Below the pieces are notes generated by a model. It ran no database searches. It saw nothing but the letters and a program-made list of their open reading frames with translations, and had not been told where the DNA came from. Positions 605 to 52,611 of a stretch of 64,000 nt of DNA are shown piece after piece (the stretch's first letter is position 1; the number at the start of each line of letters is the position of its first letter). The position numbers and the translations under genes were made by a program. The stretch is from NCBI GenBank assembly GCA_944324805.1, contig CALUXS010000001.1, forward strand, positions 62,001-126,000, in the 5' to 3' direction. Source of the DNA: an uncultured Acholeplasmatales bacterium (lineage in GTDB: Bacteria; Bacillota_I; Bacilli_A; Acholeplasmatales; Anaeroplasmataceae).

Positions 605-2086
605 ATGGAATATGTATTAATTATCGATCAAGGAACTACTAGTACAAGAGCAATTGCTTATGATTTGAAAGGAAATCAAATATGCATGAGCAAGAAAGAA
701 TTTAAGCAGTTGTTTCCTAAAGAATTGTACGTAGAACAGGATTTAGCCGATGTTATTAGAACGGTTGAAGAGTCAATATTAGAAATTATTAATACGCTTG
801 GAACTGAAATAATTGCGCTCGGAATTGCTAATCAAAGGGAGAGTACGGTTCTTTTTGGTAAGGATGCAAAACAACTCTATAATGTCATTTCCTGGCAAGA
901 TAGAAGAACTACAACTTTATGTAATCAACTAAAATCAGCAGGATTAGAGGAAAAAATCTATAAAAAAACTGGTCTAAAACTAGACCCATGTTTTTCTGCT
1001 TCTAAAATATATTGGCTTTTACATAATGTTCATAAAGCATTTGATAAGGCATTGAGAAAAGAAATATTTTTTGGGACTATGGACACATATTTATTGTATT
1101 ATTTGTCGGCTGGTAAAATATTTAAAACTGATGTGACTAATGCTTCACGTACAATGCTATATAATATATACACTAAAGCTTGGGATAATGAATTATGTAA
1201 AATTTTTGATGTTCAAAAAGAAATGCTTGCCGAGGTTTGCCCATCAAGGCATTTTTATGGTAAAACAAGTAAATCTTCTATTTTTAAAAAAGAGATTCCT
1301 ATTTTAGGAGTCATTGGTGATCAACAAGCATCATTGTTCGGACATTTGTGTCTAAATCAAGGAGATGCAAAGATTACCTTTGGTGAAGGTTGTTTTTTAT
1401 TAGCAAATATTAATTCACCTAAAATTGTAGAGAAAAGTAAATTAATCACTTCAGTAGGGGCTATGTATGATAATAATTTCCATTACATCGTAGAAGGAAG
1501 TGTCTTTTATGCAGGATCTTTAATAAAATGGTTGAAGGAAGACTTAAATATTTTAAGTACTGAGGATGAAAGTGAAAAAATAGCTTTTGAAATTGAAAAT
1601 TCGAAAGGCGTTTATGTTATTCCATCTTTTATTGGAATGGGTGCACCTCATTGGATGAATGGAGCTAAAGGTGTTATTTTTGGTCTTGGTCCTGATGTTA
1701 CTAAAAAGCATATTATTAGAGCAGCCTTAGAGTCAATTTCTTATCGAGTAAATGACATAATAAGACAAATGGAAAATGAAAATCAAATGAAAATATCTCA
1801 AATATATGCTGATGGTGGTGCCTCAAAAAATAATTTTTTGATGCAATTTACAGCAGATATTTTAGATACTGCAATTATTAGGCCTAAAAATATTGAAATT
1901 ACAGCTCTAGGTGCATTTTATTTGGTAGCCTTAGAGTTGAAGTTGTATAATAGCATAGAAGAAATAAAAATAGCTAGCGCAAACAAGAAAAGTGATATTT
2001 TTAAGGCAAGCATTACAAACTCTATGCGTGATAGTTTATTAGAAGATTGGCAAAAAAGAATAAGGATGGTATTAGAAAATGATTAA
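605..2086 (+). CDS. glpK: glycerol kinase (FGGY family)
   Basis: The 493-residue protein has the usual length for GlpK, which phosphorylates glycerol to glycerol-3-phosphate with ATP. The N-terminal phosphate-binding loop DQGTTSTRA, the NQRE motif near residue 79, the WQDRRT motif near residue 98 and the DVTNASRTMLYNI segment near residue 178 are all glycerol-kinase-like rather than xylulokinase-like. The C-terminal FGGY signature region around DGGASKN (near residue 400) is present. The start is supported by a GAGGTGA sequence just upstream. It overlaps the peroxiredoxin gene by 8 bases. No glpF or glpD is next to it. Confidence 0.9.
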   Translation: MEYVLIIDQGTTSTRAIAYDLKGNQICMSKKEFKQLFPKELYVEQDLADVIRTVEESILEIINTLGTEIIALGIANQRESTVLFGKDAKQLYNVISWQDRRTTTLCNQLKSAGLEEKIYKKTGLKLDPCFSASKIYWLLHNVHKAFDKALRKEIFFGTMDTYLLYYLSAGKIFKTDVTNASRTMLYNIYTKAWDNELCKIFDVQKEMLAEVCPSRHFYGKTSKSSIFKKEIPILGVIGDQQASLFGHLCLNQGDAKITFGEGCFLLANINSPKIVEKSKLITSVGAMYDNNFHYIVEGSVFYAGSLIKWLKEDLNILSTEDESEKIAFEIENSKGVYVIPSFIGMGAPHWMNGAKGVIFGLGPDVTKKHIIRAALESISYRVNDIIRQMENENQMKISQIYADGGASKNNFLMQFTADILDTAIIRPKNIEITALGAFYLVALELKLYNSIEEIKIASANKKSDIFKASITNSMRDSLLEDWQKRIRMVLEND

Positions 2087-2540
2087 TATTGGTGATAGAA
2101 TCCCGGATTTTACTTTATTAAACCAAGATGGAAAAGAAACAAAATTAACTGATTTTAAAGGTAAAAAAATTTTATTATATTTTTATCCAAAAGATATGAC
2201 TAGCGGATGTACTATGGAAGCTTGTAACTATAGAGATAATTATCAGCGCTTTATTGATAATAATACGATAGTCATTGGTATCTCAAAAGATTTACCAAAA
2301 TCACATAAAAAGTTCATTGAAAAAAATGAATTACCTTTCATTTTACTTTCAGACCCAGAATTGAATATGATTAAATATTTTGATTTATGGAAAGAAAAAA
2401 AATTGTATGGTAAAACATACATGGGAACATTACGAGCAACCTTCATTTTGGATGAAAATTTGGAGGTTATTTATACAAATTATAAGGCATCTGCAAAGGA
2501 AGATGCTCAAAATAGTCTAAACTTTTTAGAAAATTTGTAA
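2079..2540 (+). CDS. bcp: thioredoxin-dependent peroxiredoxin, Bcp/PrxQ type
   Basis: This 153-residue protein reduces hydroperoxides with thioredoxin as electron donor. The peroxidatic cysteine is Cys44 in the motif TSGCTMEAC and the resolving cysteine is Cys49, the two-cysteine arrangement typical of the PrxQ subfamily. The preceding FYPKD stretch and the DPELNMIKYF region near residue 90 also fit. It overlaps the 3' end of glpK by 8 bases, implying coupled translation. FAD-linked glycerol-3-phosphate oxidation produces H2O2 in some Firmicutes, which would make this pairing sensible, but no oxidase is visible here. Confidence 0.9.
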   Translation: MINIGDRIPDFTLLNQDGKETKLTDFKGKKILLYFYPKDMTSGCTMEACNYRDNYQRFIDNNTIVIGISKDLPKSHKKFIEKNELPFILLSDPELNMIKYFDLWKEKKLYGKTYMGTLRATFILDENLEVIYTNYKASAKEDAQNSLNFLENL

Positions 2541-2606
2541 TTTAGAAAAAAAATACTTGCTTTAGAGAGCTTAAAACGATATAATTAAAAAGCTGAGGTG
2601 ATTTGT

Positions 2607-3071
2607 ATGCGGTTTTCTTTAGCTCAGTTACTGAAGTTACCTATGCCTTATCGCTTTACTGAATCAATGGACTTAAAGTCTGATTTAGTTGGCTTAGAAG
2701 GTATTCTTGATGTCATATTTTGTAATGTTGAAGGAGAGGTCTATCATATTGATAAATCAAATTATCAAATTAGATTTAAACTTCATACAAAATTAATTTT
2801 AGAATGTGCTGTTTCCTTGAAGGAAGTGCCATATGAAATTAATACGACCTTCACGGAAATTTTTTCTCCTGAAGAAAGTGATGATACTTTTCCAATTGAA
2901 GGACAAACTCTTGACACGAAAGAAGCTGTTATCACTAATATTTTAATCAATAAACCTATGAAGGTTTATGCTGATGGTGAGTATTTTGTTGATGAAGATG
3001 ATAGCTTTGGTGATGATGAACCAGAAGAAAAAATAAATCCAGCATTTGAATCTCTCAAAGATCTATTGTAG
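2607..3071 (+). CDS. yceD: YceD/DUF177 family protein
   Basis: The 154-residue acidic protein belongs to the DUF177 family, whose gene is almost always directly upstream of rpmF, as here (11 bases). The family is linked to 23S rRNA processing or ribosome assembly in some bacteria and plants; the precise role is not settled. I chose the ATG at 2607 over the GTG at 2598 because the GAGGTG ribosome binding site at 2595-2600 lies 6 bases before that ATG and overlaps the GTG. Confidence 0.85.
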
Positions 3072-3082
3072 GAGGTGTAATT

Positions 3083-3277
3083 ATGGCTGTACCTTTTCGT
3101 AGAGTATCTAAGATGAAGAAGGGAATGAGACGTTCTCATCAAGCATTAAGCGTTCCTGGAATGATTACTTGCCCAAATTGTGGTGAATTAACATTAGCTC
3201 ATAGAGTATGTTCTAATTGTGGTTACTACAAAGGAAAACAAGTAGTAAATGTTGAAAAGAAGGAAAGCGCAGAATAA
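3083..3277 (+). CDS. rpmF: 50S ribosomal protein L32
   Basis: The 64-residue basic protein has the conserved L32 N-terminus ([10 protein letters not shown]) and the zinc-binding pairs CPNC and CSNC near residues 30 and 43. This is the zinc-containing L32 form. A strong GGAGG lies 8 bases upstream. It is followed at once by a hairpin that looks like a rho-independent terminator. Confidence 0.95.
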
Positions 3278-3297
3278 TTGCGAAATAGTCGGATAGA

Positions 3298-3329
3298 AAT
3301 AGATGCTAGAGGCATCTATTTTCTATTTA
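3298..3329 (+). terminator. terminator after rpmF
   Basis: A 9-bp perfect stem (AATAGATGC / GCATCTATT, loop of 5) is followed by a T-rich tail. It ends just before the rsmH ribosome binding site, so it probably limits read-through from the ribosomal gene into rsmH. Confidence 0.75.
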
Positions 3330-3340
3330 TGGAGGAAAAT

Positions 3341-4267
3341 ATGGAATATAAACATTATAGTGTGCTTTTAAATGAATCAATTGAAGCTTTAAATATAAAG
3401 GAAAATGGAATTTATGTTGATGCAACTACTGGTGGGGCAGGGCATAGCTCAAAGATTTTAGAAAAGATAACGACTGGACACCTTTATTGCTTTGACCAAG
3501 ATGATTATGCTTTAGAACGCAGTAAAAAAAGATTAGAAATAATAGGCGAAAATTTCACTTTAATTAAGGCTAATTTCGCAGATATAAAGGAAAAATTAAA
3601 TTTGCTTGGTGTTGAAAAAATAGATGGTATTATTTACGATTTAGGCGTTTCTAGTTTTCAACTTGATATGGTCGAAAGAGGATTTTCTTATCGTGAAGAT
3701 GCACCTTTAGATATGCGAATGGATAATAATTCAAAATTAACTGCTAAGGATATTGTAAATAATTATTCTAAAGAAGAGATACAAAAAATTTTATATAAAT
3801 ATGGTGAAGAGCCTAATGCAAGAAAAATTGCTGATGCAATAGTAAAAAGAAGAGAAATTAGTCCAATAAATACTACACTAGAATTAGTTGACGTTATTAA
3901 AGGTGCATTACCACAAAAAATTTTGAAGCAAAAGGGACATCCAGCGAAGCTAACATTTCAGGCATTAAGAATTGCAGTTAATGATGAACTTGGTGTATTA
4001 GAAAAGAGTTTAAACGATGCCTTAGATCTTTTGAATAGTGATGGATATTGTGCTGTCATAACTTTTCAACCATTAGAAGATAAAATAGTTAAGCACATTT
4101 TTAAAGAACGCTCAACAGTTGATATTCCAATTGGATTGCCAATTGCGAATGTACCACTTGCACCATATGAAATGGTAACAAGAAAACCAATTTTGCCAAG
4201 TGAATGTGAGCTTGATGAAAATCATAGATCTCATAGTGCTAAATTGAGAGTTTTGAGGAGAAGATAG
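3341..4267 (+). CDS. rsmH: 16S rRNA (cytosine1402-N4)-methyltransferase
   Basis: The 308-residue protein carries the RsmH (MraW) landmarks: the N-terminal HYSVLLNE, the SAM-binding DATTGGAGHS motif, DLGVSSFQLD, GFSYREDAPLDMRM, and the C-terminal RSHSAKLRVLRR. It methylates N4 of C1402 in the 16S rRNA decoding centre. I chose the ATG at 3341 because a GGAGG lies about 6 bases upstream; the longer frame from TTG at 3278 would run through the rpmF terminator. Unlike most Firmicutes, there is no mraZ, ftsL or penicillin-binding protein gene beside it, so it is detached from the division cluster. Confidence 0.93.
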   Translation: MEYKHYSVLLNESIEALNIKENGIYVDATTGGAGHSSKILEKITTGHLYCFDQDDYALERSKKRLEIIGENFTLIKANFADIKEKLNLLGVEKIDGIIYDLGVSSFQLDMVERGFSYREDAPLDMRMDNNSKLTAKDIVNNYSKEEIQKILYKYGEEPNARKIADAIVKRREISPINTTLELVDVIKGALPQKILKQKGHPAKLTFQALRIAVNDELGVLEKSLNDALDLLNSDGYCAVITFQPLEDKIVKHIFKERSTVDIPIGLPIANVPLAPYEMVTRKPILPSECELDENHRSHSAKLRVLRRR

Positions 4268-4268
4268 C

Positions 4269-5642
4269 ATGAAAACTTTTGATTTGGGAAAAGATAATAT
4301 TACAAAAATTGTGTTTAGATTAGCACTTCCTGCGATGTTAGGGCAATTTGTGAATGTTTTATATGGAATTATTGATCGTATTTATATAGGTAATATTCCT
4401 AATATTGGAGATTTGGCATTGGCAGGAGTAGGAATATGTGCCCCTGTAACAACTTTATTAACTTCATTTAGCTATTTAGTTGGTGTAGGAGGAGCTCCGT
4501 TATTATCGATGGCATTAGGAGAAAAGAAAGAAGATAAGGCCAAAAAAATATTAGCTAATAGTTTTATAATGATGATTGTGCTAGCATTATTTATAACAAT
4601 TATTACCTTGATTTTTATTAATCCATTTTTGAGACTTTTTGGAGCTACTGATGCGAACTTTGAATATGCAAAAACATACTTACAAGTTTATTTAATTGGA
4701 GCTCCTTTCGCAATTATGGCATTAGGATTAAACCAATTTATTACTTGTCAAGGCTTCGGAAGCGTTGGAATGAAAACAATGCTTGTTGGGGCAATTATTA
4801 ATATAATATTAGATCCTATATTTATTTTTGTTTTTAACTTAGATGTACTTGGTGCAGCAATTGCTACAGTTATTGCTCAAATTGCTTCATGCTGTTATAC
4901 ATTGCTTTTCTTATTTGGAAAGAAAACATTTGTAAAAATTAGTTTTGGTAATTACAACTTTGCTTTAATGCGTAAAATACTACTAATGGGACTTTCTCCA
5001 TTTATAATTTTAGCGACAGATAGCATAGTAAATATTTCATTAAATAGTGCATTGAAACTTCATAGTGGAAATAATGCTGATTTTTATTTAACAGTTGCAA
5101 CGATTACTACAAGCTTTTTTCAATTAATAACTATGCCTTTATTGGGTATTACGGGTGGAACGCAAGCAGTTATAAGTTATAATTATGGAGCTAGACAAAT
5201 TGATAGAGTCAAAGAAAGTGAAAAAAAGATATTTATTCTTGCTCTAAGTTTTAACGTCATATTCTTTATTTTATCATTTGTTATTAGTAAACCATTTACT
5301 TATTTATTTACTAAAGATCAAAGTATAATTGCTGAAACAAGTAAGATGATAAGAATTTTTATGTGGGGAGTTATTCCTCTTGCATTCCAATATAGTTTTA
5401 TAGATTGTTTAACTGCTTTAGCACAGCCTAAGGCTGCTGCATTTGGTTCATTATTTAGAAAGACTTTAGTGATAATATTGACATGGGTACTTCCTATTTT
5501 TATGGGTAGTATAGGATGTTTTTATGCTGAGATGATAACAGATATTGCTGCTGCAGTATGTTCAAGCATCTTATTTTCATTTGTATTTCCTCGTGTATTG
5601 AGGGCAAGGGTTTCTGAAATAGAAGTAACGGATATGAATTAG
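4269..5642 (+). CDS. MATE family multidrug/cation exporter
   Basis: The 457-residue integral membrane protein has about 12 hydrophobic helices in two homologous halves, as in MATE transporters (DinF/NorM superfamily) that export organic cations using Na+ or H+ gradients. The opening KIVFRLALPAMLGQFVNVLYG and the mid-protein helix with ITGGTQAVISYNYGA are typical of this family. It starts 2 bases after the rsmH stop. It converges with a second, unrelated-in-detail MATE gene and the two share the terminator between them. The substrate is unknown. Confidence 0.88.
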   Translation: MKTFDLGKDNITKIVFRLALPAMLGQFVNVLYGIIDRIYIGNIPNIGDLALAGVGICAPVTTLLTSFSYLVGVGGAPLLSMALGEKKEDKAKKILANSFIMMIVLALFITIITLIFINPFLRLFGATDANFEYAKTYLQVYLIGAPFAIMALGLNQFITCQGFGSVGMKTMLVGAIINIILDPIFIFVFNLDVLGAAIATVIAQIASCCYTLLFLFGKKTFVKISFGNYNFALMRKILLMGLSPFIILATDSIVNISLNSALKLHSGNNADFYLTVATITTSFFQLITMPLLGITGGTQAVISYNYGARQIDRVKESEKKIFILALSFNVIFFILSFVISKPFTYLFTKDQSIIAETSKMIRIFMWGVIPLAFQYSFIDCLTALAQPKAAAFGSLFRKTLVIILTWVLPIFMGSIGCFYAEMITDIAAAVCSSILFSFVFPRVLRARVSEIEVTDMN

Positions 5643-42330: not shown

Positions 42331-42387
42331 AAGGAGGAAAAAGTTATGCAAAATTTAAATTGGTTGATTACGATTTATTGCAACCCC
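42331..42387 (+). pseudogene. rbgA: orphaned native rbgA start and attL
   Basis: AAGGAGGA at 42331-42338 and ATG at 42346 start a frame reading Met-Gln-Asn-Leu-Asn-Trp, which then runs into element sequence and stops at a TAG at 42388-42390. The first six residues match what is expected at the RbgA N-terminus (B. subtilis RbgA starts MTIQWFPGHM). The element half-site is 42363-42387, which contains GTTGATTACG and TTGCAACCCC. This is the left end of the insertion. Confidence 0.85.
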
Positions 42388-42518: not shown

Positions 42519-42542
42519 TGGTGATTACGTCATTGCAACCCC
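42519..42542 (+). repeat. second copy of the att half-site inside the left end
   Basis: TG followed by GTGATTACG and ATTGCAACCCC repeats the left half-site at 42363-42387 but is 3 bases shorter in the middle. The copies lie 158 bases apart in the same orientation. It may be a recombinase-binding accessory site or a scar of an earlier insertion. Confidence 0.65.
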
Positions 42543-42641
42543 ATAAAAAATTGTCCTTGCAACAAGAAAATAGTTGTTACACATTTTCATTTGCTAAAAA
42601 AGTATAGTATTATACTTATATGAAATGAGAGTGTGATAAAG

Positions 42642-42807: not shown

Positions 42808-42838
42808 GAACTGGTAATAAAATATCAGTTCTTTTTTT
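42808..42838 (+). terminator. terminator before parA
   Basis: GAACTGGTA and TATCAGTTC arms (one G-T pair) are followed by seven T's. Confidence 0.75.
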
Positions 42839-42859: not shown

Positions 42860-42887
42860 TAGCCATCTTATTTATATAAGGTGGCTA
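42860..42887 (+). promoter_or_regulatory. 12-bp hairpin just upstream of the parA ribosome binding site
   Basis: TAGCCATCTTAT-TTAT-ATAAGGTGGCTA forms a 12-bp stem with one G-T pair. It is not followed by a T tract, so it is more likely a translation or RNA-stability element or a DNA-binding site (for example a partition site) than a terminator. Confidence 0.5.
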
Positions 42888-42913
42888 AATATAAAAGAAA
42901 GGAGGAGATGAAG

Positions 42914-43738
42914 ATGTCACAATGTAAGGTAATTGCAGTTGCTAATCAAAAGGGTGGAGTTGGTAAAACAACAACGGCTTTTAGTACAGGAGTTGCATTA
43001 TCTCAAATGGGTAAGAAAGTTCTTTTAGTGGACGCTGATCCACAAGGTGATTTAACGACTTATATGGGTTGGTATGAACAAGATAAATTGCCTTTAACAT
43101 TAGCAGATTTAATGGAACAGTCTATGAATGACGAGCCAATAAAAGTAAAAAAAGCAATATTACACCATAAAGAAAATGTAGACTTAATTCCTGCTAATTT
43201 GGATTTGTCGGCAATGGAAATGTCATTAGTCAATGCAATGAGTAGGGAGTACACTATGAGAAATTGTTTGTCAGAAATCAAAAAAGATTATGATTATATT
43301 ATATTGGACTGTATGCCAAGTTTAGGTATGGTAACAATAAATGCTCTTGCTAGTGCAGATAGTGTTATTATTCCAGTTCAATCACAATTTCTTGCTGCAA
43401 AAGGTATGACGCATTTATTAAAAACAATTTCCAAAGTAAGAAGACAGATTAACCCAGATTTAAAAGTAGATGGTGTATTACTGACTTTGGTAGATAAAAG
43501 AACAAATTTATCAAAAGAAGTAAAAACACAACTACAAGAAAATTATGGAAGTATGTTCAATTTTTTTGAAACACAAATACCACTTGCAGTAAAAACAGCA
43601 GAATCAACTTCACGAGGTAAGAGCATATTCACTTACGATAAAAACAGTAAAGTGGCAGAGGCATATTCTTCATTTGCAAAGGAGGTGGTTGATATTGGCA
43701 AAGAACGAAACAAAAATGCCGTTTGCAAAGTTAGATGA
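42914..43738 (+). CDS. parA: ParA/Soj-family partition ATPase of the element
   Basis: The 274-residue protein has the deviant Walker A motif KGGVGKTTT near residue 16, the switch DADPQGDLT near residue 42, and the Walker B region YIILDCMPSLG near residue 127. ParA proteins move or position DNA molecules and are frequent in Firmicutes integrative elements. The start at 42914 has GGAGGAG 6-7 bases upstream; the longer frame to 42881 lies across that site. It overlaps the parB remnant by 44 bases. Confidence 0.9.
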   Translation: MSQCKVIAVANQKGGVGKTTTAFSTGVALSQMGKKVLLVDADPQGDLTTYMGWYEQDKLPLTLADLMEQSMNDEPIKVKKAILHHKENVDLIPANLDLSAMEMSLVNAMSREYTMRNCLSEIKKDYDYIILDCMPSLGMVTINALASADSVIIPVQSQFLAAKGMTHLLKTISKVRRQINPDLKVDGVLLTLVDKRTNLSKEVKTQLQENYGSMFNFFETQIPLAVKTAESTSRGKSIFTYDKNSKVAEAYSSFAKEVVDIGKERNKNAVCKVR

Positions 43739-43877
43739 CTTGTTTACAACAGAAGAAGAACGACAAACGGCTAATTTAGAAAAAGTTATTGATATACCAA
43801 TAACAGAAATTGAAGACTTTCCAAATCACCCATTTAAAGTTATTGTAAATGATGAATTAAAGGGCCTGTCTAAATAG
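43695..43877 (+). pseudogene. parB: truncated ParB-like gene (N-terminal fragment)
   Basis: A TTG start at 43695 with GGAGGTGG 6-7 bases upstream gives 60 residues beginning MAKNETKMPFAKLDDLF, which is the usual N-terminus of ParB-like proteins following parA in Tn1549-type conjugative elements (the segment EIEDFPNHPFKV marks the start of the ParB nuclease-like fold). The frame ends right after that segment, whereas ParB is normally 300 residues or more. The break is near 43860; everything beyond (the conjugation module in related elements) is missing. Confidence 0.8.
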
Positions 43878-44036: not shown

Positions 44037-44076
44037 AGCAGTACATTAGAATTTTTTGTGTACTGCTTTTCTTTTG
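44037..44076 (+). terminator. leader hairpin with T tract (possible attenuator)
   Basis: AGCAGTAC (44037-44044) and GTACTGCT (44060-44067) form an 8-bp stem with a 15-base loop followed by TTTCTTTT. It lies between the promoter at 43947 and the start codon at 44095, so it may attenuate the downstream gene. Confidence 0.55.
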
Positions 44077-44094
44077 AGAAAGGAATGTAAAAAA

Positions 44095-44820
44095 ATGGAA
44101 CTAAATGAAAAAATCGAAAGTTATATTGATGAGTTTTATGTGTTATATAAATATGATGTAAAAAGTATTTTTAAATCTATGAATAAAGATATATCTACCA
44201 AAGAAAAAATGAAAAAATTAGATGATAAACAAATAAAGAATTTGATAAAGTTTTTTGATTCTTTTCTATTTATAATAGATTATAGTTTTTTAGATGGAAA
44301 AGGATTACTGTTTGCATTTGAAAATTATGATTATAATGCTACACCGTCATATAGACGAGTACATATTGTTACAACATTGCTTGAAAATGAAATAATCAAT
44401 ATAGAAGAAATTATGAATAATGAAAATCTTACTGATAAGCAGTTAATATATGAAATGGAATTACCAATGATCAAAAATATTGATGACAAAGAAGCAATAT
44501 ATAAAAGAGTGCCAATGATACCAGAGATTTATTCGTATTGTGAAAAGGCATTAAGTGAAATGTGCTATATAAATTTAAAAAAATTGACATTTACGCATTT
44601 ATTTGATTTTCAAAAAGACTGTTTAAAGGTATTGAAAAAAGTAAATAAAATGGATAATGAAGAACAAAAAAAGGAACTATTATATTGCTTTGCTAATAGT
44701 TCCATAAGTAATAAAGATATATTACTTTCTGATCCGATTTTACAAAATTATAGTTTTGATAGTAACAATGGAGATAATTGGAAGAATATCTATGACTTAC
44801 TGAAAGAAACAGTATTATAG
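44095..44820 (+). CDS. uncharacterised element protein
   Basis: I do not recognise this 241-residue protein. It is soluble, helical and lysine/asparagine-rich, with no membrane segment and no clear catalytic motif. The ATG at 44095 has an AAAGGA about 10 bases upstream; the longer frame to 44056 crosses the leader hairpin. It is controlled by a strong promoter with repressor-like half-sites and converges with the XRE gene (stops 1 base apart). Being regulated cargo in a mobile element, it may be a host-interaction, defence or toxin-type protein, but nothing in the sequence shows that. Confidence 0.6.
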   Translation: MELNEKIESYIDEFYVLYKYDVKSIFKSMNKDISTKEKMKKLDDKQIKNLIKFFDSFLFIIDYSFLDGKGLLFAFENYDYNATPSYRRVHIVTTLLENEIINIEEIMNNENLTDKQLIYEMELPMIKNIDDKEAIYKRVPMIPEIYSYCEKALSEMCYINLKKLTFTHLFDFQKDCLKVLKKVNKMDNEEQKKELLYCFANSSISNKDILLSDPILQNYSFDSNNGDNWKNIYDLLKETVL

Positions 44821-46082: not shown

Positions 46083-46118
46083 AGGCAATAGCATTCATTT
46101 TATGGAGGTTTATTGCCT
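46083..46118 (+). promoter_or_regulatory. hairpin enclosing the ribosome binding site of the small gene at 46119
   Basis: AGGCAATA (46083-46090) and TATTGCCT (46111-46118) are perfectly complementary. The GGAGG ribosome binding site lies in the loop and the ATG follows the 3' arm directly, so folding would modulate initiation. Confidence 0.55.
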
Positions 46119-46292
46119 ATGGATAGAAGATACTACTCTCCGAAAAAGGAAAATAAACAACATAATGCAGTTATTGAAAAGGTCAGATTCACCTACAAAC
46201 AAGGTGAGTTTGACCTTTTTTTTAATGTTCTTAAAGTGAGGACAGGCTGCCGTGATCCACCTTATCAATTTGTTTTTAAAAATTCAAATTGA
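46119..46292 (+). CDS. small conserved element protein (57 residues)
   Basis: A 57-residue frame from ATG 46119 with GGAGG upstream. It ends with the segment VRTGCRDPPYQFVFK, which I recall from small proteins just upstream of the sigma-like gene in Tn1549-type elements. Function unknown. Codons 21-35 form a strong terminator-like hairpin, so the same bases may be coding and regulatory. Confidence 0.6.
   Translation: MDRRYYSPKKENKQHNAVIEKVRFTYKQGEFDLFFNVLKVRTGCRDPPYQFVFKNSN
46179..46223 (+). terminator. terminator-like hairpin inside the 46119 gene
   Basis: AAGGTCAGATTCACCT (46179-46194) pairs with AGGTGAGTTTGACCTT (46202-46217), 16 bp with two G-T pairs, loop of 7, followed by T's. It lies in codons of the small gene, upstream of the sigma-like gene. 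This suggests attenuation controlled by translation or by an antiterminator. Confidence 0.7.
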
Positions 46293-46307: not shown

Positions 46308-46784
46308 ATGGCAGAACGCCCAAAAAGAAGAAAAAGTAATGATAATCCTTATACATTAAATTATTGTGAGGAAACAAATATTTATACTATCTCGTTTAAA
46401 GATGGAAATGGTGTATTACAAAAAATAGAAGTTAGCGAAAGTATATTTAAAACATTTGATAGATTTGAACTTGATGATTTATCACAAATGAATGAATACG
46501 ATAATCATATAGAACATTCAGAAATCTATGAGAATAACTTGAATAGCCGTGCTATGGACAAGCCAATGAGTTTAGAAGATGAAGTAATAAATAAATGTAC
46601 TTTTGAAGATTTAAGAAGTGCAATAGAAAAATTACCAGAGGTACAAAAAAGAAGAATTAAAAAATATTATTTTCAAGAAAAAACAGAGCAAGAAATAGCA
46701 GATGAAGAAAATGCTACACAACAGTCAGTACATATCATTTTAGAGCGTGCAATAGAAAATTTGAAGAAAATATTAAAAAAATAA
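46308..46784 (+). CDS. sigma-70 region 4-like regulator of the element
   Basis: The 158-residue protein has a divergent N-terminal half and a C-terminal sigma-70 region 4-like helix-turn-helix (about residues 98-155: LRSAIEKLPEVQKRRIKKYYFQEKTEQEIADEENATQQSVHIILERAIENLKKIL). Such short sigma-like proteins are regular components of Tn916/Tn1549-type elements near the recombination module and are thought to control excision genes. There is a GGAGGA 7-8 bases before the ATG. A strong terminator follows. Confidence 0.8.
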   Translation: MAERPKRRKSNDNPYTLNYCEETNIYTISFKDGNGVLQKIEVSESIFKTFDRFELDDLSQMNEYDNHIEHSEIYENNLNSRAMDKPMSLEDEVINKCTFEDLRSAIEKLPEVQKRRIKKYYFQEKTEQEIADEENATQQSVHIILERAIENLKKILKK

Positions 46785-46819
46785 AAATTAGTGTCTGTTA
46801 TTTTACGTTTTAGTTAGGA

Positions 46820-46867
46820 AACAGGTGAGAGGGTAAGTTATTCCCTTTCACCTGTTCTCCTTTTTTA
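46820..46867 (+). terminator. terminator after the sigma-like gene
   Basis: AACAGGTGAGAGGG and CCCTTTCACCTGTT form a 14-bp stem (one mismatch), followed by CTCCTTTTTT. Confidence 0.88.
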
Positions 46868-47230
46868 GTGGAGGCAGGACGTTCTTTGAAAATTTGATAT
46901 ACATTTCATCAAATACGTTCCTGTTGTTATTCCGAGAGGATAAGCACGTTAATAAGTACGCCAAGACCTTTTATAAATATAAGAGCGAGCGATTAAATAC
47001 TTGATTATAAAATTAGGTTGCTCCTAATATTGCGATAACAGACAACAGGGTTAAAGATACTCCTGCCTAGCCACAGACTCACGCAATGGGGGCAGTCTTG
47101 AGCGAACCTCAAGAGGGTGAAATTCCCGTGAGATTGACTAGCAGTCAATCGTTTGATGATTTCCCGTAGGCTGAGGGGTTTCGAGGAGAAATATCAGTTA
47201 TAAAAACAAAATAAAAATAAAGATAAATTA
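46868..47230 (+). ncRNA. candidate structured non-coding RNA of the element
   Basis: This 360-base stretch holds no plausible gene but many complementary segments. AGGCAGGA (46872-46879) can pair with TCCTGCCT (47061-47068); TTTGAT/ATCAAA (46893/46908) is local; CCTGTTG (46920-46926) can pair with CAACAGG (47043-47049); ATTAGG/CCTAAT (47012/47023) is a hairpin; CTCACG (47078-47083) pairs with CGTGAG (47127-47132) and encloses CTTGAG-CGAAC-CTCAAG (47097-47113); GATTGACT-AGC-AGTCAATC is at 47132-47150. It is flanked by a terminator on each side. Local base composition is clearly less AT-rich than neighbouring genes. I cannot assign a known RNA family. Confidence 0.6.
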
Positions 47231-47261
47231 AGCCAGAGTATGCCCATACTTTGGCTTTTAT
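47231..47261 (+). terminator. terminator of the candidate RNA
   Basis: AGCCAGAGTATG and CATACTTTGGCT (12 bp, one G-T pair, 2-base loop) followed by TTTTA. It lies upstream of the next gene's GGAGGA. Confidence 0.88.
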
Positions 47262-47282
47262 ACATAAAGGAGGAGAATGTAT

Positions 47283-47483
47283 ATGAAAAGAAAAAGATAT
47301 AAAGTGAGAATTAAACTGATATTTGAAACTACAATGGATCATTCACAAGAAAGTATGGTTAAAGCCAAACAGGATGTAGATAGAGTATTGACTGATTATT
47401 TAAAAAATAAAAAGTTAAATATATTAAACTTATTTCAAGAGCCACCACGAATTATCTATAAAGTTGAAAAATATGACAGATGA
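47283..47483 (+). CDS. small basic element protein (66 residues)
   Basis: A 66-residue basic protein (MKRKRYKVRIKLIFETTMDHS). I prefer the ATG at 47283, 9 bases from GGAGG, over that at 47277, which is only 3 bases away. No family recognised. It resembles the protein at 47848 in size and general pattern (short, basic, with an alpha-helical VDRVL or VEDVL region) and the two may be paralogues. It overlaps the MazF gene by 11 bases, so it could be the partner antitoxin, which is only inference. Confidence 0.55.
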   Translation: MKRKRYKVRIKLIFETTMDHSQESMVKAKQDVDRVLTDYLKNKKLNILNLFQEPPRIIYKVEKYDR

Positions 47484-48411: not shown

Positions 48412-50124
48412 ATGGCAGGTCGTGGAAATAAAAAGCAGAGTAGAAAAAATGATGAAAATAAGAGATGGCTACTAGGTGTATATGGAAGAAGATCATTTGA
48501 TGATGGAGAAAATAGTGAATCTTATACTATTAAAAATCAAAAGGCATTAATAGAATCTTTTATAGAAAATCTGCCAAATGTAGAAATTGAAGATTATTAT
48601 ATTGATGATGGATATACTGGTACTAATTTTGAAAGACCGGGATTTAAAAGAATGTTACAAGATGTATTAAACGGTAAAATAAATGGAATTATTGTAAAAG
48701 ACTTATCAAGGTTAGGGAGAAATCATAAAGAGGTTGGAAAATATATTGAAGAAATATTTCCAATATATGATATAAGAATTATCTCTGTAAATGATAATGT
48801 TGATTCGTATTTAGACCCAGAATCAATAAGTAGTTTGATAGTACCAGTAAAAAATCTTATGAATGAAAATTATTCAAGGGATTTGTCAAAAAAGGTTTCT
48901 AGTGCTTATGAAATTATGGCAAAGGGTGGACAATTTGTTGCAGGAACTCCACCTTATGGATATATGTTAGACCCAGAAGATAAACATCATTTAATACCAG
49001 ATCACAACGAAGTAGATGTAGTAAAAAAAATATTTGATATGGCTTTATCAGGGAGTGGTCGACCAACGATTTGCCAGTATCTTAATGATAATGGAATTTT
49101 GTGCAGAAAAGAATTACAAAGGAGGAAAAAAAGAAAACTTACATTAGAACCTTTTGAAATAAAGTCACAATATTTATGGAGTACATCTACAATTGGTAGA
49201 ATGCTTCATAATGAAGTGTATATCGGAAATCTAGTACAATTAAAAACTACAAGGGCTACTTTTGGATGTAAAAAAATTATTTCTAAAGATGAAGATGAAT
49301 GTGTTCGCTCTGAAAACACTCACGAGGGAATAATACCCAAAGAAGATTTTTATAAAGTTCAAACCATAATAAAGCAAAATGATAAAAAGAAAACACATAA
49401 TACACCAATAAACTACTCAATATTTAGGGGAATACTGAAATGTGCCGATTGTGGCAGAGCAATGACCAAACAAGAAGATTTTAGAGGCAAACGACAACTT
49501 TCAAACTATTTTTGTATGAGTTATTTGCAAGTAAGTAAATCTTGTTCATCACATAAGATAAAAACGAGTAATTTAGAAACTGCAGTATTAGAGGCAATTC
49601 AAGTACAAGTGAAATTAGTAATTGAATTAGAAAAAAGTTTGTCTAAACTGTATTTTAAGAATAATCAGAGTTCTATCGAAAATGAATATAAAAATAATGT
49701 AAAAATTTCAGAAATAAAAATATCTAATTTAAAAGAGCAAAAGAGAAAATATTATGAGGAATGGAAATTTGATAAATTAGAAAAAAGTGAATTTATTAAA
49801 TTATCTGAAGAAATCGAATCTAAAATTGCCAAGTTAAATGAGGACATAGAATTATATACATCAACATATAGGGAAAACATAAAGAAAATCAGAAAAAATG
49901 ATTATTGGATAGGTCATTATAAGAGAAATAGAAGAATTAAAAATCTTTCAAAAGAAGTCTTAAATGAATTAATAGAAGTTATCTATGTTAGAAAAGATGG
50001 TAGCCTAGACATTAAATTCAAATATCAAGATGAATATTTAGGATTAATAAATTATTTAGAAGAGGAGGAAGCAAAAATCAATGAAGAAATGGAAAATAGG
50101 GATTTATCGCAGGCGTTCATTTGA
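48412..50124 (+). CDS. large serine recombinase 1
   Basis: The 570-residue protein has the resolvase/invertase catalytic domain with Ser28 in GVYGRRSFD as expected nucleophile, DDGYTGTNFERPGFKRM, and KDLSRLGRNHKEVGKYIE; a recombinase domain; a zinc ribbon starting LKCADCGRAM (near residue 342) and completed by Cys residues in YFCMSY and SKSC; and a coiled coil at the C-terminus. Such enzymes integrate and excise elements at short att sites. The ATG at 48412 follows AAAGGAGGAGG; the GTG at 48406 lies within the site. It overlaps recombinase 2 by 44 bases. Confidence 0.93.
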   Translation: MAGRGNKKQSRKNDENKRWLLGVYGRRSFDDGENSESYTIKNQKALIESFIENLPNVEIEDYYIDDGYTGTNFERPGFKRMLQDVLNGKINGIIVKDLSRLGRNHKEVGKYIEEIFPIYDIRIISVNDNVDSYLDPESISSLIVPVKNLMNENYSRDLSKKVSSAYEIMAKGGQFVAGTPPYGYMLDPEDKHHLIPDHNEVDVVKKIFDMALSGSGRPTICQYLNDNGILCRKELQRRKKRKLTLEPFEIKSQYLWSTSTIGRMLHNEVYIGNLVQLKTTRATFGCKKIISKDEDECVRSENTHEGIIPKEDFYKVQTIIKQNDKKKTHNTPINYSIFRGILKCADCGRAMTKQEDFRGKRQLSNYFCMSYLQVSKSCSSHKIKTSNLETAVLEAIQVQVKLVIELEKSLSKLYFKNNQSSIENEYKNNVKISEIKISNLKEQKRKYYEEWKFDKLEKSEFIKLSEEIESKIAKLNEDIELYTSTYRENIKKIRKNDYWIGHYKRNRRIKNLSKEVLNELIEVIYVRKDGSLDIKFKYQDEYLGLINYLEEEEAKINEEMENRDLSQAFI

Positions 50125-51726: not shown

Positions 51727-52611
51727 ATGAAGAACAATGAAATACAAGGGGGGTTGCATAAAAGTGTAATCAACTGGTTTCCAGGACATATGGCCAAGGC
51801 TAAAAAGGAACTAATGCAAAAATTAAAATTGGTAGATTTGGTGATTGAACTTAGAGATGCGAGAATTCCTTTTTCCTCCCAAAATCCACTTTTAAAAGAA
51901 TTGATTGGTAATAAACCAAGGCTTATAATTCTATCAAAATCATTAATGGCAGATCAAAACATTACGAAAAAGTTTATTGATTATTTCAATTCGGAAAATA
52001 TTTTAGCTTTAGATGTTGATCTTGTTAATGGTAAAAATGTCTCACTAATAAAAAACTATATTACAAAGGCAGCTAGTGAAATAATAAATAAAAGAGTGGC
52101 AAAAGGAATAATTAATAAAGAAGTAAAAATTATGGTTGTTGGTATACCAAATGTTGGAAAATCTACATTTATTAATAAACTTGCTAGCAAGCGCTCTTTG
52201 AATGTTGGTAATAGACCCGGTGTCACTAAATCGACAAATGTATGGATTAAAATAACTAATGAGTACCTACTTTTAGATACTCCAGGAATTTTATGGCCAA
52301 AATTTGAATCTGAAGATGTAGCTGCTAAATTAGCTCTTTGTGGAGCTATAAAGGATGAGCTTTTACCAATTCAAGATTTAACAATTTACGGGATAAATTA
52401 TTTGAAGGAGTATTATCCTCAAGCGTTGAAGGATAGATATAATTTGACAAATTTAGGAGATCCTCTTCAAATAATTGAAGAAATAGGTAAAAATCGTGGT
52501 GCCTTGAGACGTGGCGGAGAAATTGATTTAGATAAGGTATACAAATTATTTTTACAGGATGTAAAAAATGCCAAGTTAGGAGCAATAAGCTATGAGCGAC
52601 CAAGTGAATAA
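51727..52611 (+). CDS. rbgA: ribosome biogenesis GTPase RbgA (YlqF), N-terminus supplied by the element
   Basis: The 294-residue circularly permuted GTPase is needed for 50S assembly. The conserved protein begins at WFPGHMAKAKKEL (Trp17); the first 16 residues are encoded by the integrated element. G1 is GIPNVGKST (139-147) and G3 is DTPG. The G4 motif, NKxD in B. subtilis RbgA (in LLNKADKA), is SKSL here (residues 70-73), so nucleotide specificity may be changed. AAGGAG is the ribosome binding site. Overlaps rnhB by 20 bases. Confidence 0.92.
   Translation: MKNNEIQGGLHKSVINWFPGHMAKAKKELMQKLKLVDLVIELRDARIPFSSQNPLLKELIGNKPRLIILSKSLMADQNITKKFIDYFNSENILALDVDLVNGKNVSLIKNYITKAASEIINKRVAKGIINKEVKIMVVGIPNVGKSTFINKLASKRSLNVGNRPGVTKSTNVWIKITNEYLLLDTPGILWPKFESEDVAAKLALCGAIKDELLPIQDLTIYGINYLKEYYPQALKDRYNLTNLGDPLQIIEEIGKNRGALRRGGEIDLDKVYKLFLQDVKNAKLGAISYERPSE
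51750..51776 (+). other. attR: right half-site of the element
   Basis: The 25 bases 51750-51774 (start GGGGTTGCA, end GTAATCAAC) are an inverted copy of the left half-site 42363-42387. They are followed by the TG dinucleotide and the conserved rbgA codons. The half-site is translated as part of RbgA. Confidence 0.85.

What the first reader, a model, noticed from the sequence alone, without database searches (positions are those of the whole stretch)
46868..47261. Candidate structured non-coding RNA within the element
A roughly 360-base gene-free stretch lies between a terminator and its own strong terminator. It has several exact complementary pairs including an 8-bp long-range closing pair (46872/47061), a 7-bp pair (46920/47043), nested CTCACG/CGTGAG around CTTGAG-CGAAC-CTCAAG, and an 8-bp hairpin with a 3-base loop (47132-47150). 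Some pairings are mutually exclusive, which fits a switching or multi-state RNA. It sits between a sigma-like regulator and the toxin/recombinase genes, so it may control excision or plasmid-like maintenance.
Basis: seen in the sequence. Interest (0 to 1): 0.75.

Follow-up and report, generated by a model that had tools for sequence, protein, structure and literature searches.

The report
RNA antiterminator in a mobile element
This is a structured RNA of about 270-380 bases that most likely lets RNA polymerase run through stop signals in a mobile DNA element; it matches an orphan RNA family (Rfam "pemK") which, as shown here, is the essential core of canT, the antiterminator RNA of the conjugative transposon Tn916.

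Summary
Window 47051-47131 is a clear match to Rfam RF02913 (pemK RNA; 54.4 bits, cut-off 34.8), a family for which the papers I could read give no function. The conserved RNA is much larger than Rfam's 61 positions: about 270 nt (46881-47150), and in this subtype it may run on to a terminator-like hairpin at 47257. It has an rRNA-type boxA at its 5' end and long-range helices with compensatory changes across 44-47 homologues. Homologues lie at the recombinase end of integrative elements, usually behind a sigma-like gene. The same RNA lies between orf8 and xis of Tn916, where Wirachman and Grossman (2024) showed that canT is a cis-acting processive antiterminator. Their inactivating canT(S3) mutation falls on the first three bases of the RF02913 match, and their 162-bp deletion removes the whole match. 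Best explanation: a canT-type antiterminator that lets transcription pass the terminator-like hairpin before the toxin/recombinase genes and, after excision, the left-end terminator before parA. Use of host Nus factors through boxA is inferred. New member of a known kind; apparently new are the link pemK = canT, the full-length fold and the boxA.

The parts
46822..46860 (+).
   Evidence: sequence; similar hairpins precede the RNA in L226, L230, L236, L242
46881..46892 (+). boxA-like site GUUCUUUGAAAA at the 5' end of the conserved RNA
   Evidence: 37 of 47 homologues against 1.7 expected; rRNA leaders of host and relatives carry UCUUUGAAAAC
46892..46914 (+). Hairpin P1 (46892-46898/46908-46914)
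   Evidence: sequence; variable among homologues
46919..46928 (+). P2 5' strand, pairs with 47041-47050
   Evidence: swap test, own 18.8 against other 14.5, 0 of 10000 permutations
46950..47007 (+). P3 (46950-46958/46998-47007) with conserved ACGCCAAGACC and GAGCGA inside
47012..47028 (+). Hairpin P4
   Evidence: compensatory changes in alignment A1
47041..47050 (+). P2 3' strand
47051..47131 (+). Core: Rfam RF02913 (pemK RNA). Motif UUAAAGAUACU 47051-47061; H1 47063-47068/47090-47095; H2 47096-47102/47108-47114; H3 47115-47117/47125-47127
   Evidence: 54.4 bits; 19 of 19 pairs with compensatory changes
47132..47150 (+). Hairpin H4
   Evidence: swap test, 0 of 10000 permutations
47151..47229 (+). 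3' extension with GGGG..CGAGGAGAAAUA, found in the PemK-type subset
47230..47263 (+). Terminator-like hairpin, tail UUUUAUACAU
   Evidence: sequence; similar hairpin in several PemK-type relatives
46308..46784 (+). Sigma-70 region-4-like regulator
   Evidence: PF04545/PF08281
47473..47835 (+). PemK/MazF-family toxin gene
   Evidence: PF02452, E 1.5e-32
48412..50124 (+). Large serine recombinase 1
   Evidence: PF00239/PF07508/PF13408
50081..51667 (+). Large serine recombinase 2
   Evidence: PF00239/PF07508/PF13408
42808..42838 (+). Left-end intrinsic terminator upstream of parA (position of Tn916 T1)
42881..43738 (+). ParA-family ATPase at the left end of the element
   Evidence: PF13614

Best explanation
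The stretch encodes a canT-type processive antiterminator RNA. Transcription comes from upstream, presumably from the promoter of the sigma-like gene, and makes a nascent RNA that starts with a boxA. The RNA folds through P2, P3 and P4 into the pemK core (H1-H4). It stays on the same RNA polymerase, probably with host Nus factors recruited by boxA, and makes that polymerase resistant to terminators. In the integrated element this would carry transcription past the terminator-like hairpin at 47230-47257 into the PemK-family and recombinase genes. After excision and circle formation it would carry transcription across the junction and past the left-end terminator (42808-42838) into parA. Shown here: homology, fold, covariation, boxA, gene order and overlap with the canT mutations. 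Shown in the literature for Tn916: cis-acting, processive antitermination. Inferred: that this copy is transcribed and active, and that boxA binds NusB-S10.
For: RF02913 match. Tn916 (in pCF10, L215) carries RF02913 at 4263-4363, between orf8 and xis. canT(S3), ATA to TGC at nt 283 after orf8, is L215:4263-4265, and canT(d162) is 4209-4370; canT is essential, cis-acting, orientation-specific and processive in PMC11658703. Positions 1 and 5 of the motif hit by S3 pair in 48 of 48 sequences with four pair types, A-U in Tn916 and U-A in the window. Helix P2, core, P3 and H4 covary. boxA in 37 of 47 homologues against 1.7 expected. Recombinase downstream in 37 of 46 homologues, one of which has almost no downstream DNA; many upstream neighbours are sigma-70 region 4 proteins (29 of 87 proteins scanned). 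Left-end terminator before parA.
Against: No transcript or activity data exist for this copy. The element looks like a remnant (parB cut short, no transfer genes), so the RNA could be a relic. A terminator-like hairpin also lies between the sigma-like gene and the RNA, and no convincing promoter was found for the RNA. boxA function in this RNA has never been tested; the published deletion that kills canT leaves the boxA in place, so boxA alone is not sufficient.
Confidence: 0.85

Rival explanations
1. A leader attenuator or riboswitch that regulates the PemK toxin gene in cis, as the Rfam name suggests: the RNA folds in two ways and decides whether the terminator-like hairpin at 47230 stops transcription.
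For: Rfam types it as Cis-reg; a hairpin with a U-rich tail directly follows the RNA in the window and several PemK-type relatives.
Against: PemK-family genes follow only 10 of 46 homologues, recombinases 37; most homologues have no terminator right after the RNA (9 of 45); no conserved competing fold was found; the Tn916 member acts on several unrelated distant terminators.
Confidence: 0.1
2. A free small RNA that ends at its own terminator (47257) and acts in trans on element or host genes.
For: The gene-free stretch ends in a terminator-like hairpin.
Against: Most homologues lack such a terminator; canT of Tn916 acts in cis and a copy in trans does not complement (PMC11658703); no promoter-like site at the 5' end.
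Confidence: 0.03
3. A decayed relic of an antiterminator without present function.
For: The element has lost most ICE genes (parB cut to 67 aa, no transfer genes in the window copy).
Against: All helices are intact in the window copy, the motif pair has swapped to U-A with the pair kept, and both recombinases are full length.
Confidence: 0.12

Closest known systems
canT of Tn916 (Wirachman and Grossman 2024, PMC11658703)
   Same: Same Rfam core, same 5' boxA, P2/P3 and H4; same place between sigma-like/HTH genes and the recombination module
   Different: Tn916 is followed by xis/int (tyrosine recombinase) without a terminator between; here PemK and two serine recombinases follow, with a terminator-like hairpin between
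Rfam RF02913 pemK RNA
   Same: Window 47051-47131 scores 54.4 bits over the 61-position model
   Different: The model holds only part of the RNA; only about a fifth of homologues are next to PemK genes
conAn (ConAn1 protein + conAn2 RNA) of pLS20
   Same: Processive antitermination of a conjugation operon, by function
   Different: First 50 kb of pLS20 have no RF02913 match and no boxA-like site at 1900-4700; needs a protein partner
EAR of Bacillus eps operons; put RNA of phage HK022
   Same: RNA that makes polymerase terminator-resistant (literature)
   Different: No EAR match in the window
rRNA operon boxA antitermination (NusB-S10)
   Same: Same UCUUUGAAAAC box in host and relatives' rRNA leaders
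   Different: rRNA leaders lack the pemK core

Membership tests
Rfam RF02913 (pemK RNA) | Covariance model score at or above the gathering cut-off | tested here: met
   54.4 bits against 34.8
Rfam RF02913 (pemK RNA) | Consensus hairpins H1, H2, H3 | tested here: met
   all present; 95% of cells paired over 24 sequences
canT-type antiterminator | Homology to Tn916 canT over its essential part | tested here: met
   same RF02913 core in L215 at the site of canT(S3) and canT(d162); same 5' landmarks
canT-type antiterminator | Place between regulator genes and recombination genes of an integrative element | tested here: met
   sigma-like gene upstream, two serine recombinases downstream
canT-type antiterminator | Terminator at the left end of the element ahead of its first operon | tested here: met
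   42808-42838 before parA
canT-type antiterminator | Cis-acting, processive readthrough of terminators | not testable with these tools
   needs a reporter assay
rRNA-type boxA (NusB-S10 site) | Sequence match to boxA of rRNA leaders | tested here: met
   37 of 47 homologues; rRNA leaders of host and three relatives
rRNA-type boxA (NusB-S10 site) | Binding of NusB-S10 | not testable with these tools
   needs binding assays or a nusB mutant
conAn2 of pLS20 | Shared RNA family with pLS20 conAn region | tested here: not met
   no RF02913 match in pLS20 1-50000
Group II or group I intron fragment | Match to an Rfam intron family | tested here: not met
   no intron match in the window at gathering scores, nor in 46750-47300 at E up to 1

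The most novel reading that the evidence does not exclude
Rfam's pemK RNA and canT are one widespread class of large boxA-containing RNAs with which integrative elements of many Bacillota borrow the host's rRNA antitermination machinery, so that one promoter at the recombinase end can drive genes across terminators and, once the element is circular, across its junction.
Probability: 0.55. Interest if true: 0.75.

Novelty: new member of a known kind. Interest (0 to 1): 0.62.

Why it matters
It gives a function to an orphan RNA family and extends the antiterminator known from Tn916 to serine-recombinase elements and many genera. It defines the full-length fold, explains why the canT(S3) mutation inactivates, and points to host factors (NusB, S10) that can be tested at once. 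RNA antiterminators of this type may be a common switch that keeps integrated elements quiet and turns them on after excision.

Tried and rejected
Intron or ribozyme fragment: no Rfam intron match. The weak Rfam hits CyaR (25.9 bits) and SNORD65 are far below cut-off. Loose pattern scans of genome contigs and viral contigs returned mainly chance matches in unrelated phyla; the tighter viral scan gave one locus, L009, without an RF02913 match. DNA search in plasmids with the window sequence found nothing, but the Tn916-type homologue did. conAn2 as the same family: rejected. My automatic split of downstream genes into serine and tyrosine recombinases was not clean, so only the total is used. 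A promoter for the RNA was not found.

Full report
OBSERVATION. The stretch 46868-47261 is gene-free apart from chance ORFs. It folds at -108.9 kcal/mol, z = -4.9 against dinucleotide shuffles. No intron or riboswitch family matches.

HOMOLOGUES. A search of 395 genomes of the same class with RF02913 gives matches in 29, often several per genome. None of the seven other genomes of the same genus has one, so the RNA travels with mobile DNA. Plasmid records of Enterococcus, Clostridioides and others also hold it, and so does a faecal contig filed as phage (L303).

THE RNA IS MUCH LARGER THAN THE RFAM MODEL. Reading upstream of the cores shows shared landmarks: UUCUUUGA(A/C)AACUGAAUA at 130-220 nt before the core, UACGCCAUGACC at about -95, GAGCGA at about -64, then a hairpin and a conserved AUGAC. 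A boxA-like site occurs in 37 of 47 homologues against 1.7 expected from shuffles. The rRNA leader of this very genome carries GGUCUUUGAAAACUAUAUA about 110 nt before the 16S gene, and leaders of relatives carry AUCUUUGAAAACUGAAUA. The 5' end of the RNA therefore looks like an rRNA boxA, the NusB-S10 site of rRNA antitermination (established knowledge; abstract of PMC4807359).

COVARIATION. Helix P2 (window 46919-46928 with 47041-47050; Tn916 CGAUAAGAA with UUCUUAUCG) was tested by swapping 3' strands between homologues: own pairs score 18.8, swapped pairs 14.5, 0 of 10000 permutations reach the own mean. On 24 cores, RNAalifold predicts 19 pairs in H1-H3 and all 19 have compensatory changes. 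95.1% of cells pair against 76.3% in shuffles, and the covariation score is 0.625 against at most 0.172 when partners are slid. Hairpin H4 (window 47132-47150) scores 12.9 against 9.4 on swapping, 0 of 10000, and P3 13.7 against 11.8, 1 of 10000. Among six window-type RNAs, P2, P3 and P4 are predicted without guidance. Caveats: alignments come from MAFFT, sequences are related, and R-scape was not available.

LINK TO canT OF Tn916. A homologue near a Tn916-type xis gene matched pCF10 at 94.9%; there the RNA lies between orf8 and xis with RF02913 at L215:4263-4363. Wirachman and Grossman (PMC11658703) found that this interval holds canT, an element-encoded antiterminator that is cis-acting, orientation-specific, processive, and active on foreign terminators without other Tn916 genes. 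Their canT(S3) changes ATA to TGC at nucleotide 283 after the orf8 stop codon. In pCF10 this is ATA at L215:4263-4265, the first three bases of the RF02913 match, and canT(d162) (4209-4370) removes the whole match. The paper mentions neither pemK, Rfam nor boxA. In the motif AUAAUGAUACU, positions 1 and 5 form a standard pair in 48 of 48 sequences with four pair types: A-U 42, U-A 4, G-C 1, G-U 1. canT(S3) would break that pair; the window has the swapped U-A pair. Papers that cite RF02913 and could be read treat it only as a structure; the paper that first described the motif was not held.

SURROUNDINGS AND MECHANISM. Many upstream neighbours are sigma-70 region 4 proteins (29 of 87 scanned); downstream are resolvases, integrases, Tn916 Xis and PemK. 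A recombinase follows in 37 of 46 homologues, PemK in 10, so the Rfam name reflects a minority. The window element is inserted in the 5' end of rbgA: relatives have lepB next to rbgA, and the junctions are TTGGTT/GATTACG near 42360 and ATCAACTGGTTTCC near 51774. All modules point the same way, so in a circle transcription from the regulator end would pass the recombinases and the junction and meet the left-end terminator 42808-42838 just before parA. This is the Tn916 T1 arrangement. Unlike Tn916, a terminator-like hairpin lies directly after the RNA in the window and several PemK-type relatives, with tail UUUUACAUA or similar and an extra conserved 3' block. The RNA may therefore also license the toxin/recombinase operon in the integrated state. 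This last step is inference.

WHAT REMAINS OPEN. The promoter, activity of this copy, the role of boxA, and the role of the hairpin upstream of the RNA. The element lacks transfer genes and may be a remnant. A sister element in a genome of another family (L304) sits in the same gene with the same recombinase pair and carries a vanG-like cluster, which shows that elements with this module can carry cargo between families.

VERDICT. A real RNA, a member of RF02913, homologous to canT. New here, as far as the literature I could read goes: that pemK RNA and canT are the same thing, the full-length fold, and the boxA.

Noticed in passing
L304 (G434:C21:1-20000): Sister element in a genome of another family, with the same two serine recombinases and inserted in the same rbgA gene, carries a vanG-like cluster (response regulator, kinase, VanW, D-Ala ligase-like, VanY, alanine racemase-like).
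   Followed up: partly
window 46113-46289: Small leader ORF upstream of the sigma-like gene contains a 19-pair terminator-like hairpin (46176-46220); small ORFs sit at a similar place in some relatives. Possible second attenuator in the same operon.
   Followed up: no
window 42524-42543: A second copy of the element end sequence (GATTACG..ATTGCAACCCC) about 165 bp inside the left junction, perhaps the trace of a second insertion.
   Followed up: no
window 51727-51775: After insertion rbgA starts with an element-encoded start codon and N-terminus (MKNNEIQGGLHKSVINWFPGH), so the element keeps the host gene readable.
   Followed up: partly
window 43674-43877: ParB-like reading frame cut to 67 aa; transfer genes are missing, so the element is probably a reduced ICE.
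   Followed up: no
L215:2814-3043: Rfam RF03532 (SQ2397, cis-regulator of an HTH factor) lies in Tn916 between the HTH gene and orf7.
   Followed up: no
window 44056-44820: 254-aa protein without any Pfam or NCBIfam match inside the element.
   Followed up: no
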